A stretch of DNA of 20,733 bases from a virus. The notes under the pieces are model-generated. The model had not been told where the DNA came from and did no database searches. It was given only the letters and a program-made list of their open reading frames with translations. The stretch's first letter is position 1. Every line of letters begins with the position of its first letter. Both the position numbers and the translations under genes were made by a program. Location of the stretch: IMG/VR virus record IMGVR_UViG_3300017963_000842, positions 1 to 20,733 of that record; one strand, written 5' to 3'. Shown here in pieces: positions 5,245-15,291 of this stretch.

Positions 5245-5485
5245 AGCAATCATTTATCTTGTACCAAAGGAGTTAGCTGTTATGGATGATACGAGTAAAT
5301 ATGATAAATATGAAAATAACTCGTACCATAAAACCAGAAAACAGATTCTGGAGGAATGGGAAAGAGAAGTGAATTTCTTTGAACGGATGATGGAAGAAGA
5401 AACAAAAAAGAGTCATCACGTTCCTCCATCTGCTTTGACCCATCAGGTTCCACATCATAAGGTATTTAGGAATCAAACTCGATGA
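5234..5485 (+). CDS. Small protein of unknown function (83 aa) between portal and MuF
   Basis: This is a hydrophilic protein of 83 residues with a likely helical centre (TRKQILEEWEREVNFFERMMEEE) and a His-rich tail. It starts within the end of the portal gene at ATG 5234 or 5237, after GGAG at 5224. A third possible start, ATG 5282, has its own AAGGAG nine bases upstream and would give 67 residues. Its stop overlaps the MuF start by four bases, so it sits inside the coupled head operon. I do not recognise a family. A minor head or assembly role is only suggested by position. Confidence 0.65.
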   Translation: MMSRAIIYLVPKELAVMDDTSKYDKYENNSYHKTRKQILEEWEREVNFFERMMEEETKKSHHVPPSALTHQVPHHKVFRNQTR

Positions 5486-8199
5486 CAAATCTTGCACTCA
5501 AAATAAATGCGATTAGAGGACTCAAAGGGAGTCAACCTTTTCAAGTCCCCATTCGCGCTACAATGGCAAAAGACCCTACACAGACCATAATGCTTAGGCA
5601 TGCGTGGATCATGGACACCAACGCGCGATTTGGTGCCCTTAAGTCGGTAATACGCACAAGCATTGTGGACAATGACTGCTTCGGTCTTAAGGAAAAGCCA
5701 AAAGACGTCGCAGAAATTATTGCGATGTCACGACTCCAGGATGAACTTGATAAGTTGACTCCTGTTACTCCGAATGGATTCGCCTACAATAAGAACCAAA
5801 GAAAAGTAAGTGGGTTTATGTCATGGTTAAGGGAACAGGAACAACTCGGTATTCTGGAAGTCACAGCTGGACGAGCCCGGGATGGAGTTGACGCATGGTC
5901 AAATGTGTATATTCGTTCTTCTTATCAGAAAGGACTCCAACGTGCCAGACAAGATTTAATTGCCACCGGAGTAGAGTTAAATCCTTTTTCTGAAATACCT
6001 GGAGGAGTCGGAACTGTATTCAAACAACCTTTCCATGCGGAAGCGGTAGGACTCATTTATACCCGAGTGTATGATGAACTCCGTGGTGTGACCAGAGCAA
6101 TGGATGGGGATATATCAAGAGTACTATCCCGGGGACTGGCAGAAGGGAAAGGTCCGGAAGCTTTAGCCAGAGCATTAAATCAAAGAGTAGATGCGATTGG
6201 AGTGAACCGAGCAAGGCTGATAGCCAGAACAGAAACAGTTCTTGCTTTCAATACTGCGGCCATTAACTCCTATACTTCCGCAGAACAGATTATTGGAAAG
6301 ACTATCTATGTACAATGGTGGACTGCAGGTGATGCCAAAGTACGACCCGCCCATATCGAACGTCATGGAGAAGTATATAAGAAAGACGAAGCGTATGATA
6401 TGCTGGGAGAACCGAACTGCCGTTGTACAGTACTTCCATATATACCGGATTGGAAAACGAAAGGAAAGGTCGGTGGAGTGGAAGGAAAAGGAGTTGTTCC
6501 TTCTGAGGCAATGCAAGAAGCCGTTTATGGTGGCCCGGGAATCATATCTGCCATTATTGATATAGCTTCACAGGGAAAGTATATGAGTGCGGATGATGTA
6601 GTAGAACAACTCATACCACTCTTTCCGGGTAGAAGTGCAGAAGCCATGCGTAAAACGGTCACGGCACAACTCGGTTCTCAGTTAAAGTCAAAAGGGTATG
6701 TAATTGAGAAAATGAAAGAGGGAAGGAAGACTCTATATAAAATTGCAAGGAAACCGGATGGGAAGAAAGTTAAACCGAAACCCAAGCCGAAGCCGGTAGT
6801 CAAACCAAAGCCGGATAAGAAAGTTAAACCGAAACCCGGTCCGACTCCTCCTCCTACTAAAGCAAAGACTGTGACTGGAGCCATCATAGATATTGCCAGT
6901 GAGGATTTCGTTACCGTAGACCAAGTTACAGAAGCACTCAAGAAGTTGTTTCCGGATAGAGTAAGAGCAAAGATGCGGAAAACAGTTCAGGCTCAACTCG
7001 GTTCACAGCTCCGGGCAAAAGGATATGTGATTGAGAAATATAAAGAAGGGCGGATTACTTATTATAAGATTACTGGTAAACCGGATGGAAAGAAAGTAGT
7101 CCCCAAGAAAACAACTCCTGCGAAAAAGACCATTCCTAAGAAACCGGAAAAGATAGATAAGGCAGGACTCCAGATGTTGTTAGATGATTTGGAGGAACAG
7201 AAGCTTATTTTACAAAAGGAGTTGACTGATTTAAATTCGAGTAATCTTAGTTCTATAGATAAATATATGAAGAGGACTTTAATTGAAGCGGAATTAAAAC
7301 AACTCCGACTTCAGATAGCGAGTGTTTACTATGAACAGAAAGACTTCGCAGCTATTCGTCAAATGAAACGTGATAGAGTATTCCCGAGAGTGTCTAAAGA
7401 TAGTCAAACACTACTCGCGAAATCAGGTAAGCTTGCACATTTCAATAAGGTAGTAGATGATGCATTTGATTATATGCCCTATGACTTAGTAGAAGACCTA
7501 ATGGAGAACTCCAAGATATATCTTCATGATAAAAGATACTTTCGAGCATACCATCAAGGTATGTATACGGGAGGAGATTTATATAGTTCAAATATTCATT
7601 TGGGACTTTATAATTTGGACTCTACTACTATGGCTCATGAATTCGCTCATGCAATAGATCAATATTGGAGTGGAAAAAGAAATAGAGTTGGTGGTTGGTG
7701 GAGTGATAGTAAATATATTAAAAAGAAGGACGGTGATAAATATCGTAAGTTGTTTAAGAATCAACATTCTGGTAAAAAGAGAATATACACTAATGGGGAC
7801 GGGGAGTACTGGGAAGACAATTGGATTCATAATTATGAAGGACGTGTTTATACTCGTAGTTATGGAGATACCGGGATAGAGTGGTGGTCGATGAACATGC
7901 AACGGTATGCTGAATATCGTACGATTCAAAATGACCTCAAAAGTAATATAGTGAAAACCCAAAGAGTTTGGAGAAGAGATATTGATTTTTTAAAACAGAC
8001 AATTAAAGAAGCACCAAAATATTCATATCGTAGTGAGTATGCGAAAAAACAGTTAAAGAAGTATGGTGATTTCGATAAGTATATACAACTAAAGGCATTA
8101 GAAGTAAGTAATTGGGACGCTGTAAGGGAGAAGTATACCCATCTTGCTAAATTCATTGAAGATAAATTTAATACTAACTTTATAGCATACGGAAAATAA
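5482..8199 (+). CDS. MuF minor head protein fused to winged-helix-like repeats and an HExxH metallopeptidase-like domain
   Basis: The N-terminal 345 residues form a phage Mu gpF/SPP1 gp7-type head morphogenesis protein, with the signature from ARTETVLAFNTAAINSY (about 248) to PNCRCTVLPYI (about 311-321). Such proteins bind the portal and may be ejected with the DNA. The C-terminal 560 residues are an addition: a winged-helix-like repeat (about 353-430), a Lys/Pro-rich linker (about 431-463), a second, clearly homologous repeat (about 465-542), a coiled-coil-like region (about 560-630) and a zincin-like domain with H719-E-F-A-H723. E in GIEWW may be the third zinc ligand. The DNA becomes more AT-rich in the last 600 bases, consistent with an exchangeable tail as in MuF polymorphic toxins. 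The substrate is unknown. It may be a protease acting on head proteins or an effector delivered to the host. Confidence 0.85.
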   Translation: MTNLALKINAIRGLKGSQPFQVPIRATMAKDPTQTIMLRHAWIMDTNARFGALKSVIRTSIVDNDCFGLKEKPKDVAEIIAMSRLQDELDKLTPVTPNGFAYNKNQRKVSGFMSWLREQEQLGILEVTAGRARDGVDAWSNVYIRSSYQKGLQRARQDLIATGVELNPFSEIPGGVGTVFKQPFHAEAVGLIYTRVYDELRGVTRAMDGDISRVLSRGLAEGKGPEALARALNQRVDAIGVNRARLIARTETVLAFNTAAINSYTSAEQIIGKTIYVQWWTAGDAKVRPAHIERHGEVYKKDEAYDMLGEPNCRCTVLPYIPDWKTKGKVGGVEGKGVVPSEAMQEAVYGGPGIISAIIDIASQGKYMSADDVVEQLIPLFPGRSAEAMRKTVTAQLGSQLKSKGYVIEKMKEGRKTLYKIARKPDGKKVKPKPKPKPVVKPKPDKKVKPKPGPTPPPTKAKTVTGAIIDIASEDFVTVDQVTEALKKLFPDRVRAKMRKTVQAQLGSQLRAKGYVIEKYKEGRITYYKITGKPDGKKVVPKKTTPAKKTIPKKPEKIDKAGLQMLLDDLEEQKLILQKELTDLNSSNLSSIDKYMKRTLIEAELKQLRLQIASVYYEQKDFAAIRQMKRDRVFPRVSKDSQTLLAKSGKLAHFNKVVDDAFDYMPYDLVEDLMENSKIYLHDKRYFRAYHQGMYTGGDLYSSNIHLGLYNLDSTTMAHEFAHAIDQYWSGKRNRVGGWWSDSKYIKKKDGDKYRKLFKNQHSGKKRIYTNGDGEYWEDNWIHNYEGRVYTRSYGDTGIEWWSMNMQRYAEYRTIQNDLKSNIVKTQRVWRRDIDFLKQTIKEAPKYSYRSEYAKKQLKKYGDFDKYIQLKALEVSNWDAVREKYTHLAKFIEDKFNTNFIAYGK

Positions 8200-8200
8200 A

Positions 8201-8491
8201 ATGGCAAAAGAACAAAGAGTAGTAGGGATCGAGAAGGATGGAGTCAAGGGAACTATCACCTTTGATAACGTAGAAAATAAAAAAGTTAATTTTTCTCTTG
8301 ACTTCGGTGACGACGGTGTTAAAAGTGAGGTTGAAAATTATCTTACAACAGAACAGGAATTTTGGATCCCGGAGTCGGACAGGATTGATGACTATCGAGT
8401 AGACAAAGAGAAACCCACGAAGAGTCCAATGTATTTTTCATTGGCCCTTTGTACTCTACATTCTAAACACGGTGTATGGGTGAACTGGTAA
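8201..8491 (+). CDS. Small acidic protein of unknown function (96 aa), directly after the MuF fusion
   Basis: This 96-residue protein begins one base after the MuF stop. Its ribosome binding site is poor (GGAAAATAAA), suggesting translation by reinitiation after MuF. It looks like a compact alternating beta-strand fold (VVGIEKDGVKGTITFDNV, VNFSLDFGDD) with a C-terminal Trp-containing segment, and has no signal or membrane segment. I do not recognise the family. A gene placed directly behind a polymorphic effector is sometimes its immunity or inhibitor protein; here that is only a positional idea. It could equally be a small head component. Confidence 0.6.
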   Translation: MAKEQRVVGIEKDGVKGTITFDNVENKKVNFSLDFGDDGVKSEVENYLTTEQEFWIPESDRIDDYRVDKEKPTKSPMYFSLALCTLHSKHGVWVNW

Positions 8492-12103: not shown

Positions 12104-12739
12104 ATGATTGATCATCCTTGGTCCCCTCCAAAAATGTGGCAGGGTAATACTGCTTATATAATTGGAGGAGGCCCGAGCCTTAAGAGTCAGGACTTATCGC
12201 TGATCCATAAGAAACGTGTAATCGGAGTTAATAATGCTTTTTTACTTGGCGACTGGGTGGATGTCTGTTGGTTCGGGGATATGCAATGGGGGCGCTGGCA
12301 TAAGAAAGAACTCCTTACTAAATATCACGGTCTGGTAGCATCTTGTAATACAAATACTCATTTCGTCAGGAACCATCCCTGGATCAAATTTCTTCGTAGA
12401 GGAAAGGCGATGGGGATCGATCCTCAACCCGCACACGTTTCCTGGAATCACAACTCCGGCTGTAGTGCCATCAATTTAGCCTACCACTTCGGAGCCACAC
12501 GGATAGTCCTTCTCGGGTTCGATATGTCCAATGGAAAGAAAGGTGAAACACATTGGCATGGCGGACACAAACAACTCCCAAAAGATCAAAAAGGAAACAA
12601 CACCCCATATTCACGCTGGGTCAAGACAACTGCTTTCATATATCGGGATGCCAGAAAACTGGGAATAGAGATTTTAAATGCTTCCCCGATTACTACCATA
12701 ACCGTATTTCCAAAAGTTAAATTGGAGGACGTGGTATGA
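12104..12739 (+). CDS. DUF115/Maf-like putative glycosyltransferase
   Basis: This 211-residue protein has a Rossmann-like N-terminus: AYIIGGGPSLKSQD (17-30) followed by VIGVNNAFLLGDWVDVCWFGD (39-59). The conserved NSGCSAINLAYHFGATRIVLLGFDM is at about 117-141. This is the pattern of DUF115/MptE-like proteins, whose flagellar relatives (Maf) are linked to transfer of nonulosonic acids onto Ser/Thr of flagellin. The phage copy is a short, catalytic-core-sized version. It starts directly after the preceding stop (TAAATG) and overlaps the next gene by four bases. In this setting it may transfer a sugar, possibly to a virion protein. Donor and acceptor are unknown, and the family includes non-transferase members. 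Confidence 0.7.
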   Translation: MIDHPWSPPKMWQGNTAYIIGGGPSLKSQDLSLIHKKRVIGVNNAFLLGDWVDVCWFGDMQWGRWHKKELLTKYHGLVASCNTNTHFVRNHPWIKFLRRGKAMGIDPQPAHVSWNHNSGCSAINLAYHFGATRIVLLGFDMSNGKKGETHWHGGHKQLPKDQKGNNTPYSRWVKTTAFIYRDARKLGIEILNASPITTITVFPKVKLEDVV

Positions 12740-13173
12740 TTCAAGAAACTACTTTAAATGATTGCAAGGTTTGGAATGAAAATCTTGTGAATATTTATGA
12801 TTCTGTGATTGGTTATAAGACCAGCATTGGAACATTTGTGGAAATAAGTGGAGCTCATATAGGCGATTATTGTACTATCGGGGCTTATACTTTTATTCCT
12901 GTTGGAGTAGTACTTGGAAATAATGTATGGGTTGGTCCCAGAGTTACTTTTACCAATGATAAATATCCTCCAACTTCTAAAGATGATCCCCGTTACCCTT
13001 GGCCTACTATTGTTGAGGATGACGTGGTTATTGGTGCAGGAGCTTTAATACTCCCGGGTGTTACAATCGGCAAAGGTGCCATGATTGGAGCCGGGGCTAT
13101 CGTAACCAAAGATGTTGGGCCGGGCCAGATGTGGTATGGCCCTTGTGCCGAGTACCAAGGAGTTTCAAAATGA
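12736..13173 (+). CDS. Hexapeptide-repeat (left-handed beta-helix) acyltransferase
   Basis: The 145 residues are built of isoleucine-patch hexapeptides: IGTFVEISGAHIGDYCTIGAYTFI near 32-55, then VWVGPRVTFTNDKYP and a second run (VIGAGALILPGVTIGKGAMIGAGAIVTKDV) near 98-127. This folds as a trimeric left-handed beta-helix, using acyl-CoA to acylate an amino sugar. The NDKYP loop and the compact size resemble N-acetyltransferases for 3-amino-3-deoxy sugars (WlbB/QdtC-like). It overlaps both neighbours by four bases (ATGA), with GGAGG before the start. It probably acetylates a sugar nucleotide made or transferred by its neighbours. The exact substrate is not shown. Confidence 0.85.
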   Translation: MIQETTLNDCKVWNENLVNIYDSVIGYKTSIGTFVEISGAHIGDYCTIGAYTFIPVGVVLGNNVWVGPRVTFTNDKYPPTSKDDPRYPWPTIVEDDVVIGAGALILPGVTIGKGAMIGAGAIVTKDVGPGQMWYGPCAEYQGVSK

Positions 13174-13844
13174 AACCAACATTTGCATGCGTGTATAGAA
13201 CGGGTGGTGATTATAATACTCGTGATGTACTCCGTCTTAAGCATAACGTTGAAAAACGTACAACTATGGATTTTAATTTTGTATGCCTGACAGATGATAC
13301 TACTCTACTACTTACCAATGAACATGGAGTTGTGGTAGATAGTGTTACAGAAGAACATTGGGCTCAACCATTATTTGGTAATTATAAGGGCTGGTGGTCT
13401 TTGATAGAGTTGTTTCGACTCACTGGTCCTGTAGTTATTACTGGTCTCGATACTGTTTTTGTTGGTTCTGTTGATCCCTTTCTTCAATTAGCCAAGAGTC
13501 TTACGGAAGAGGAGTTTTACATGATCCATGCCTTTAAAAAGAATGAGGTATGGGCTTCCGGGTTTATGATTTGGAATGGTGACTGGTCATGGCTTCTTGA
13601 TGATTTTAAATACAAGGAACATTCCGCTAAGTATCAATGGGAGCAACGGTATACAAAATTTTCTTTACTTAAACGGGGAGTCGAAATAAAAGGAGTGCAA
13701 GATCAAATAGATGGCATCTACTCCTATAAACATCATTGCCGTGGAAAGGGTGGTCCTCCAAAAGATGCAAGAGCTATTTTGTTTCATGGAAGACCACGAC
13801 CCGGGAATGTTAGAGAGAGTTGGATAAAAAAGGAGTGGAAATGA
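13170..13844 (+). CDS. Putative glycosyltransferase (GT8-like fold)
   Basis: The protein has 224 residues, starting at the ATG 13170 behind AAGGAG and overlapping the previous stop by four bases. The N-terminal KPTFACVYRTGGDY begins a nucleotide-sugar transferase-like fold. GWWSLIELFRL (74-84) precedes TGLDTVFVGSVDPF (91-104), which aligns with the metal-binding DxD region of GT8-type enzymes, although the first Asp is Gly here. VWASGFMIWNGDWSWLLDDF and the late ILFHGRPRP are also typical. It likely adds a sugar using an NDP-sugar. The altered DxD leaves open a metal-independent or non-catalytic role. It overlaps the next gene by four bases. Confidence 0.78.
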   Translation: MKPTFACVYRTGGDYNTRDVLRLKHNVEKRTTMDFNFVCLTDDTTLLLTNEHGVVVDSVTEEHWAQPLFGNYKGWWSLIELFRLTGPVVITGLDTVFVGSVDPFLQLAKSLTEEEFYMIHAFKKNEVWASGFMIWNGDWSWLLDDFKYKEHSAKYQWEQRYTKFSLLKRGVEIKGVQDQIDGIYSYKHHCRGKGGPPKDARAILFHGRPRPGNVRESWIKKEWK

Positions 13845-14443
13845 TAAACAACTTTACACAAAGATTCCCCGGTGTTCGGCAAAGTAGAATCGAGCAGACG
13901 AAGGAACAGGTTGAAGAGAAATGGATTGGGGATGGTGGAGTTAGTCTCGCTCATCCCCCCGAATGGAAGAAGCTCGAAGATAATATTGTAAAGGCCGTCA
14001 AGGACGAATGTATTGGAAAGGTTTGTGAGATAGGTTGTGGAACAGGTCGAGTCGCAAAGTTGTTCCATCCAAAGAGTTATATAGGATTGGATATTAATCC
14101 TATGGCTTTGGAAGTGGCAGAGAGGCATAATCCTAAACATTCTTTTGATTTAATAATGTGGGAAAGCTTGTACCCGGGAGCTACCACTTATTTATTCTTT
14201 ACTGTCATGCTCCATATTCCGGATTCGGAGTTATGGGGTATTGTTCGTAAACTGGATAATAGAGTCGTCATTGTGGAGGCGATGGGTCGTTGGATTCGAG
14301 ACTATGGTAAGGGTAACAACTACCAGAGGGATCCGGAGGAATACAGGAAAGTGTTTTCCCGTATTGGTATGAAAGAGAAATCCCTGTCTCATTGTCACCA
14401 GTATCATTTTCCTTACTATCTCGATATCATGGTATTTGAGTAG
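13841..14443 (+). CDS. SAM-dependent methyltransferase (class I)
   Basis: This 200-residue protein has motif I VCEIGCGTGR (61-70), then IGLDINPMALEVAE (81-94) with the acidic residue that holds the SAM ribose, and TTYLFFTVMLHIPDSEL near 118-134 as the post-motif region. The N-terminal extension of 60 residues is helical. I chose the ATG at 13841 (AAGGAG upstream, ATGA overlap with the glycosyltransferase); a TTG at 13820 lacks a site. This type methylates small molecules or sugars as well as other targets, and no DNA-methylase target-recognition domain is seen. Being the last of four tightly coupled sugar-related genes, a sugar O- or N-methyltransferase is the best guess. Confidence 0.82.
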   Translation: MINNFTQRFPGVRQSRIEQTKEQVEEKWIGDGGVSLAHPPEWKKLEDNIVKAVKDECIGKVCEIGCGTGRVAKLFHPKSYIGLDINPMALEVAERHNPKHSFDLIMWESLYPGATTYLFFTVMLHIPDSELWGIVRKLDNRVVIVEAMGRWIRDYGKGNNYQRDPEEYRKVFSRIGMKEKSLSHCHQYHFPYYLDIMVFE

Positions 14444-14574
14444 AACGGCTGCGGGACACGTGCATCTTATAGACTTTCGAGGACAGGACAACTCCTAATC
14501 CGGCCATGGAAAAAGAACCTAAGAAAGAATTTAATAACGGTCGCCGCGGCCGTTTTAACCAAAAGAGGAAAGCC

Positions 14575-15291
14575 ATGCTAAATGAACCAATATTAATAAC
14601 AGGATGTGCCAGATCCGGTACGAGCATGACTGCTGGTATTATCAATATCTGTGGAGCATGGGGAGGAAGAATGTCTGGCCCTAATGCCAATAATAAGAAA
14701 GGTATGTTCGAGAATGCTACCATTCGGAATAAAATGGTAAAGCCTTTCTTCCGTCAGATGGGAGTAGACCCTTTGGGACAAGCACCACTTCCGGATATAG
14801 ATGAGGTCAAGTTAGTATCTCAAGACTTTATTATTAACTGGCGACTTCGTATTCAGGAAATATTGGTAGAGCATGGATATGAGTTAACTGGCAACTCTCA
14901 ATGGTTTTACAAGGGAGCAAAGATGTGTCTGCATTGGCCGGTATGGCACAGAGCTTATCCGGATGCAAAGTGGATTATTGTTCGGAGGAAAAGTTCGGAT
15001 ATTGTTCGCTCTTGTTTAAAAACCGGGTTCATGAGAGCCTACCGAAATCAAGCGGGATGGCTTAAATGGATCGACGAGCACAAAGAACGGTTCATCGAGA
15101 TGAGGGAAGCAGGTTTAAATATTCAGTATGTATGGCCTCAGTTTATGATTGACCGGGACTTGACCGAAATCAGAAGAGTGGTCGAGAATTTGGGATTAAC
15201 TTGGAAACAGAAAGAAGTGGAGGCTTTTATAGAACCGGCCCTGTGGAGTGGTAAAGGGATGTCCGGTAAATCAACTCCGCGAAAAGGATAA
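14575..15291 (+). CDS. Sulfotransferase
   Basis: The 238 residues begin MLNEPILITGCARSGTSMT, containing the 5'-phosphosulfate loop CARSGTS (11-17). The 3'-phosphate-binding element RRKSSDIVRS is at about 137-146. These two motifs define PAPS-dependent sulfotransferases and related P-loop enzymes. I chose the ATG at 14575 because AGAGGAAA lies just before it; an upstream ATG at 14506 has no ribosome binding site and adds a basic, low-complexity 23 residues. A gap of 131 bases separates it from the methyltransferase, unlike the coupled genes before it, so it may be expressed separately. It would transfer sulfate from PAPS to a hydroxyl, probably on a sugar. PAPS would come from the host. Confidence 0.8.
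   Translation: MLNEPILITGCARSGTSMTAGIINICGAWGGRMSGPNANNKKGMFENATIRNKMVKPFFRQMGVDPLGQAPLPDIDEVKLVSQDFIINWRLRIQEILVEHGYELTGNSQWFYKGAKMCLHWPVWHRAYPDAKWIIVRRKSSDIVRSCLKTGFMRAYRNQAGWLKWIDEHKERFIEMREAGLNIQYVWPQFMIDRDLTEIRRVVENLGLTWKQKEVEAFIEPALWSGKGMSGKSTPRKG

What the first reader, a model, noticed from the sequence alone, without database searches (positions are those of the whole stretch)
5482..8199. MuF protein with duplicated winged-helix-like repeats and an HExxH domain
A standard MuF head (1-345) is joined to a 560-residue tail ending in a zincin-like domain (HEFAH at 719-723). MuF proteins with exchangeable C-terminal toxin domains are known; this architecture, with two DNA-binding-like repeats in between, may be a distinct type. 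It could process head proteins, or travel with the DNA and cut a host protein.
Basis: partly seen in the sequence, partly recalled or inferred. Interest (0 to 1): 0.65.

Follow-up and report, generated by a model that had tools for sequence, protein, structure and literature searches.

The report
Phage head-borne protease with partner gene
A virus of bacteria or archaea carries, fused to a minor protein of its head, a zinc protease domain folded like Pro-Pro endopeptidases, and the small gene right behind it accompanies this protease in unrelated viruses, so the two probably work as a delivered enzyme and its own off-switch.

Summary
The ORF at 5482-8199 is real: a MuF minor head protein, two copies of a 76-residue repeat, and a C-terminal zinc protease domain. 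An AlphaFold model (pLDDT 84.5) matches the M34 fold (C. difficile PPEP-1, Z 13; lethal factor domain IV, Z 11.7). H719, E720, H723, D726, Y785, E786, R788, Y790 and E800 are unchanged in 16 diverse sequences. MuF proteins with metallopeptidase tails are already known (Jamet 2017; Iyer 2017), so this is a new variant of a known kind. The repeats may be winged helices; this was not shown.

The 96-aa ORF directly downstream (8201-8491) recurs beside this protease in all 16 protease loci found without reference to it, including loci with unrelated MuF heads and herellevirus-type carriers that are not MuF proteins. Among 40 viruses of the same portal lineage it is present in 4/4 with the protease and 0/36 without. 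One orphan copy exists (L028).

Best reading: a virion-delivered protease with a dedicated inhibitor (immunity) protein, as shown experimentally for the MuF toxins Apk2 and Bxa. Self-processing, or a chaperone role for the partner, is not excluded. Host and substrate are unknown.

The parts
5482..6516 (+). MuF minor head protein part (residues 1-345)
   Evidence: PF04233 E 2.1e-17; PHROG 758 E 3e-37; 40% identical to MuF of Halorubrum phage Hardycor1
6538..6765 (+). repeat 1 (residues 353-428); winged-helix nature not shown
   Evidence: 63% identical to repeat 2; no family match alone
6766..6864 (+). Lys/Pro-rich linker (residues 429-461)
   Evidence: read from the translation
6865..7095 (+). 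repeat 2 (residues 462-538); winged-helix nature not shown
   Evidence: 63% identical to repeat 1; weak BrxA match E 1.5e-4, Stork_head E 0.005
7339..8172 (+). M34-like zincin domain (about residues 620-897)
   Evidence: AlphaFold model pLDDT 84.5; VIA-align Z 13.1 to PPEP-1/Zmp1, 158 residues, 2.7 A; profile match to lethal factor chains E 5e-6
7636..7650 (+). HEFAH motif, residues 719-723 (zinc ligands H719, H723; catalytic E720), with D726 three residues on
   Evidence: H, E, H and D invariant in 16 diverse sequences
7834..7851 (+). YEGRVY motif, residues 785-790; possible catalytic Tyr
   Evidence: Y785, E786, G787, R788, Y790 invariant in 16 sequences
7879..7881 (+). E800, probable third zinc ligand at the start of the following long helix (inferred)
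   Evidence: invariant in 16 sequences, Gln in L010; helix starts at residue 799 in the model
8201..8491 (+). 96-aa partner protein, most likely inhibitor/immunity protein of the zincin
   Evidence: homologue beside the zincin gene in all 16 zincin loci found independently of it; 4/4 versus 0/36 in the portal-lineage sample; PHROG 26403, unknown function; AlphaFold pLDDT 94.4

Best explanation
Residues 1-345 (MuF) place the protein in the virus head. The C-terminal domain is an M34-like zinc metalloprotease: H719, H723 and probably E800 hold zinc, and E720 activates water. It is carried as cargo and enters the next cell with the DNA, where it cuts a host protein. The 96-aa protein encoded directly downstream is its dedicated partner, most likely an inhibitor (immunity) protein that keeps the protease off in the cell where particles are made and is left behind when the virion leaves. 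Shown here: domain architecture, protease fold (predicted), conserved active-site residues, and the specific genetic tie between the protease and the small protein. Inferred: packaging, delivery, proteolytic activity, host target, and inhibition by the partner.
For: Fold: AlphaFold plus VIA-align Z 13 to PPEP-1, Z 11.7 to lethal factor domain IV; profile match to lethal factor chains, E 5e-6. Active-site residues invariant in 16 diverse sequences. The zincin is a portable module on different MuF heads, together with other effector-like domains such as an ADP-ribosyltransferase in L008, and on a herellevirus protein that is not MuF. The 96-aa ORF goes with the zincin and not with the lineage: 4/4 versus 0/36, absent with other zincin tails, present in all 16 independently found zincin loci; pairwise distances of the two proteins correlate (Mantel r 0.77, or 0.55 within the MuF type). 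Precedent: Apk2 and Bxa MuF toxins are blocked by small adjacent immunity proteins that bind them (PMC12226406; PMC11699363); small ORFs follow 89% of putative MuF toxins (PMC5576092).
Against: No activity, toxicity, packaging or binding was measured. One orphan partner gene without this zincin (L028). One relative has Gln at the probable third ligand (L010). Herellevirus carriers, usually virulent (own knowledge), do not need lysogen immunity, so the partner would have to protect assembly instead. Foldseek alone gave no significant PDB match (E 0.035).
Confidence: 0.58

Rival explanations
1. The zincin is a self-processing protease: it cuts its own Lys/Pro-rich linkers or other head proteins during assembly or after injection to release modules, and the 96-aa protein times this cut.
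For: Iyer et al. propose this role for zincins of polyvalent proteins, with P1 DdrB processed before packaging (PMC5512222). Lys/Pro-rich linkers precede the zincin here and in L006, L010 and L026, and the closest solved folds are Pro-Pro endopeptidases.
Against: Several carriers end with the zincin, leaving nothing further to release (L016, L021, L023, L026). Most MuF proteins of the same lineage lack the domain, so it is not needed for head maturation. Similar linkers occur with other zincins (L066).
Confidence: 0.2
2. The 96-aa protein is not an inhibitor but a chaperone or adaptor that folds, loads or positions the zincin tail in the procapsid.
For: Equally compatible with strict co-occurrence. 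The gene is kept in herellevirus-type phages.
Against: It does not follow any one head type: it accompanies unrelated MuF heads and a non-MuF carrier. Characterised small neighbours of MuF toxins are immunity proteins.
Confidence: 0.17
3. The zincin domain has lost catalysis and serves only as a structural or binding module.
For: One relative (L010) has Gln in place of the probable third zinc ligand.
Against: All candidate catalytic and ligand residues are invariant in 16 other sequences of low overall identity. The domain is absent from most heads of the same lineage.
Confidence: 0.05

Closest known systems
MuF polymorphic toxins (Jamet et al. 2017, PMC5576092), with characterised members Apk2 and Bxa
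   Same: N-terminal MuF, exchangeable enzymatic C-terminus, gene in the head/packaging module, small ORF directly downstream
   Different: The tail is an M34-like protease rather than an alarmone synthetase or ADP-ribosyltransferase; the partner belongs to an uncharacterised family; toxicity and temperate lifestyle are not shown; the same protease also occurs off MuF in herellevirus-type phages
Zincin-like MPTase domains of phage polyvalent proteins (Iyer et al. 2017, PMC5512222)
   Same: Zincin in large multidomain virion-linked proteins; Asp three residues after HExxH, as described for one of their clades; resemblance to lethal factor in profile searches
   Different: Could not be placed in one of their 12 clades (their alignment was not available); no dedicated partner gene is mentioned in the passages read
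Peptidase family M34: Pro-Pro endopeptidase PPEP-1/Zmp1 and lethal factor domain IV
   Same: Predicted fold (Z 13.1 and 11.7), HExxHxxD, downstream Tyr and Glu
   Different: 12-17% identity; long YEGR motif and a large C-terminal helix region; no Pfam ATLF match for the window protein
Halorubrum phage Hardycor1 MuF
   Same: 40% identical MuF head, similar gene order, tail also with an HEFGH motif
   Different: Its zincin is outside this subfamily and no homologue of the 96-aa protein follows it

Membership tests
MuF polymorphic toxins | N-terminal MuF domain | tested here: met
   PF04233 E 2.1e-17
MuF polymorphic toxins | gene in the DNA packaging/head module | tested here: met
   terminase, portal, MuF, capsid order
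MuF polymorphic toxins | C-terminal domain of a toxin-like enzyme class | tested here: met
   zincin fold and invariant active site; metallopeptidase is one of the classes listed in PMC5576092
MuF polymorphic toxins | small ORF (<150 aa) directly downstream | tested here: met
   96-aa ORF at 8201-8491, conserved with the zincin
MuF polymorphic toxins | toxicity neutralised by the downstream protein | not testable with these tools
   needs expression experiments
MuF polymorphic toxins | temperate phage | not tested
   the window is a 20.7-kb fragment; no homologue was found in the genome-contig scans
Peptidase family M34 (PPEP / lethal factor domain IV) | zincin fold of M34 type | tested here: met
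   predicted model, VIA-align Z 13.1, 158 residues, 2.7 A; Foldseek alone weak
Peptidase family M34 (PPEP / lethal factor domain IV) | HExxH plus downstream Tyr and Glu | tested here: met
   H719, E720, H723, Y785/Y790, E800 invariant in 16 sequences; ligand geometry not inspected
Peptidase family M34 (PPEP / lethal factor domain IV) | match to the curated family model (Pfam ATLF) | tested here: inconclusive
   no ATLF match for the window protein, but its family profile matches lethal factor chains at E 5e-6
Peptidase family M34 (PPEP / lethal factor domain IV) | cleavage of Pro-containing sites | not testable with these tools
   needs an enzyme assay
Phage polyvalent proteins | several unrelated domains in one virion-linked protein, with an MPTase hub | tested here: met
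   MuF plus zincin here; MuF, zincin and ADP-ribosyltransferase in L008; further domains by eye
Phage polyvalent proteins | transfer into the cell with the DNA | not testable with these tools
   needs virion and infection experiments
Winged-helix DNA-binding domain (the repeats) | winged-helix fold and DNA binding | tested here: inconclusive
   weak matches only: Stork_head E 0.005, BrxA E 1.5e-4; none for the repeats alone; no structure was predicted for this part

The most novel reading that the evidence does not exclude
The zincin and the 96-aa protein form a mobile two-gene protease/inhibitor module that has spread across unrelated virion carriers: several MuF head types and a herellevirus-type gene beside the portal. 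It would be a new toxin/immunity pair of viruses, used even by virulent phages, with the inhibitor protecting particle assembly rather than a lysogen.
Probability: 0.45. Interest if true: 0.72.

Novelty: new variant of a known kind. Interest (0 to 1): 0.55.

Why it matters
MuF proteins with enzyme tails are known, but the papers read describe only Apk2 and Bxa as characterised, and neither is a protease. Here a defined protease subfamily, with its predicted active-site residues, comes with a specific small partner, which makes the open question of what MuF cargo does to a cell directly testable by co-expression. If the partner is an inhibitor, it is a new natural family of inhibitors of M34-fold proteases.

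Tried and rejected
Pfam, NCBIfam and PHROGs alone: no model covers the tail. Two genome-contig scans found no relative, so host and prophage status are unresolved. Host by gene kinship: MuF matches haloarchaeal viruses, but the major capsid protein matches Brevundimonas and TerL matches Croceibacter phages, so no host is claimed. Relatives of a virus record could not be drawn. A fused reading of zincin plus partner (L023, stop read through) was aligned as a proxy for the complex, but the alignment mixed the two proteins and was dropped; the second structure job went to the partner alone. Fold search of the partner: best Z 4.4, nothing convincing. The idea that the 96-aa ORF is simply a conserved head gene of this lineage was tested and rejected: absent from 36 of 36 same-lineage loci without the zincin. 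The idea that it goes with any zincin-tailed MuF was weakened: absent with the other zincin tails L038, L052, L066 and Hardycor1, but present once with other zincins only (L028).

Full report
What was checked. The ORF at 5482-8199 encodes 905 residues. Residues 1-345 are a MuF minor head protein (PF04233 E 2.1e-17, PHROG 758 E 3e-37), 40% identical to that of Halorubrum phage Hardycor1. The gene sits between portal and capsid genes in a normal packaging module. The window is a 20.7-kb virus record, with a second near-identical contig in IMG/VR (L002). HEFAH is at 719-723 as stated. Two repeats of about 76 residues, 63% identical, lie between MuF and zincin.

The protease domain. No family model covers the tail. 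A tblastn search of 50,697 phage records found one significant relative, a hypothetical protein encoded near the portal gene of Exiguobacterium herellevirus vB_EalM-132 (E 9e-6). The two-sequence alignment opened the family: 9 loci, then 15, in IMG/VR. The other twelve domains of the 13-row alignment, at 24-33% identity to the window, share HExxH, Asp three residues later, YEGRxY and further positions. Over 16 diverse sequences H719, E720, H723, D726, Y785, E786, G787, R788, Y790, E800 and R808 never change; a further relative (L010) has Gln at the E800 position. The AlphaFold model (pLDDT 84.5, pTM 0.84) aligns best to PPEP-1/Zmp1 (Z 13.1, 2.7 A, 158 residues) and next to lethal factor domain IV (Z 11.7), and the family profile finds lethal factor chains at E 5e-6. 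Plain Foldseek gave only E 0.035, so the fold assignment rests on the profile, the second aligner and the motif together.

The company it keeps. The same zincin is joined to different MuF heads and different companions: an ADP-ribosyltransferase in L008 (PF03496 E 1.2e-22) and, read by eye, nuclease-like, JAB-like and HD-like regions in L008, L010, L021 and L022. In the herellevirus group it is on a protein without a recognised MuF domain. The window's repeats occur in no other distinct held locus, so they are a local feature, and their winged-helix nature is only hinted at by weak matches.

The partner gene. The 96-aa ORF at 8201-8491 starts one base after the zincin gene's stop codon. Homologues at 40-52% identity lie directly behind, or within about 600 bases of, the zincin gene in the MuF-type relatives with downstream DNA, and more distant ones lie behind the zincin gene in the herellevirus group. 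A whole-record search found it in all 18 records named, including a fragment at the very end of L010's contig. Sixteen distinct zincin loci were found without reference to this ORF and have complete DNA behind the gene (window, L003, L006, L008, L011, L012, L013, L016, L019, L021-L026, L085); all have it. In a sample drawn by the portal protein only, restricted to loci with a MuF gene and at least 1 kb behind it, 4 of 4 zincin carriers have the ORF and 0 of 36 others do (Fisher p about 1e-5, without correction for kinship). Those 36 include MuF proteins with no tail, with other tails and with other zincins. Pairwise distances of the two proteins correlate (Mantel r 0.77, or 0.55 within the MuF type), although shared ancestry contributes. 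Searching from the small protein leads back to the zincin: of 13 distinct loci with the MuF-type partner, 11 have the zincin, one is cut off upstream (L032), and one lacks it (L028); of three with the herellevirus-type partner all have it. In L037 the partner lies in the expected place but on the opposite strand. The partner is predicted as a compact alpha/beta protein (pLDDT 94.4) with no convincing solved relative (best Z 4.4); it falls in PHROG 26403, function unknown.

Reading. The partner follows the zincin rather than the head, the lineage or zincins in general. That is the pattern of a toxin with its immunity protein, and the characterised MuF toxins Apk2 and Bxa have such small neighbours, which bind and block the enzyme (PMC12226406; PMC11699363). 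Jamet et al. predicted small downstream ORFs of MuF toxins to be immunity proteins and found a metallopeptidase in 20% of them (PMC5576092). Iyer et al. made zincins the hub of polyvalent proteins and offered self-processing, release of other domains, or a host effector as roles (PMC5512222). The present data do not separate a host effector from self-processing, nor an inhibitor from a loading chaperone; they do show that the two genes form a unit. Zhang et al. 2012 list Imm-SuFu as partner of lethal-factor-like toxins of polymorphic systems (PMC3482391); no such match was found for this 96-aa family in Pfam.

Verdict. What is new is a zincin subfamily not covered by the family libraries used here, and its dedicated partner.

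Noticed in passing
L016:1778-5038 (MuF gene; insertion about residues 355-735): An intein-like insertion with a nuclease-like domain (DUF559 E 1.8e-12, Intein_splicing E 7e-7) splits the conserved Asn-Cys of the MuF motif HPN|CRC.
   Followed up: partly
L038:4585-8154; similar sequence in L085:4209-7154: MuF tails that carry a type IB DNA topoisomerase (Topoisom_I E 2e-24 in L038; L085 by eye), in L085 together with this zincin.
   Followed up: partly
L028:4350-7811 and 7995-8273: An orphan partner gene next to a MuF polyvalent protein with other zincins but without the window-type zincin.
   Followed up: partly
window 12104-15291: Genes for a hexapeptide-repeat transferase, a methyltransferase and a sulfotransferase-like protein, with two more possible sugar or pterin genes, are inserted between capsid and neck genes; perhaps a particle- or glycan-modifying set.
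   Followed up: no
L004:5412-7382 (Hardycor1 MuF): A haloarchaeal virus MuF has a different zincin-like tail (HEFGH), which suggests that MuF cargo enzymes also occur in archaeal viruses.
   Followed up: no
L008:6726-11825: A 1,699-aa MuF polyvalent protein with three different zincin-like motifs, an ADP-ribosyltransferase and a nuclease-like region in one chain.
   Followed up: partly
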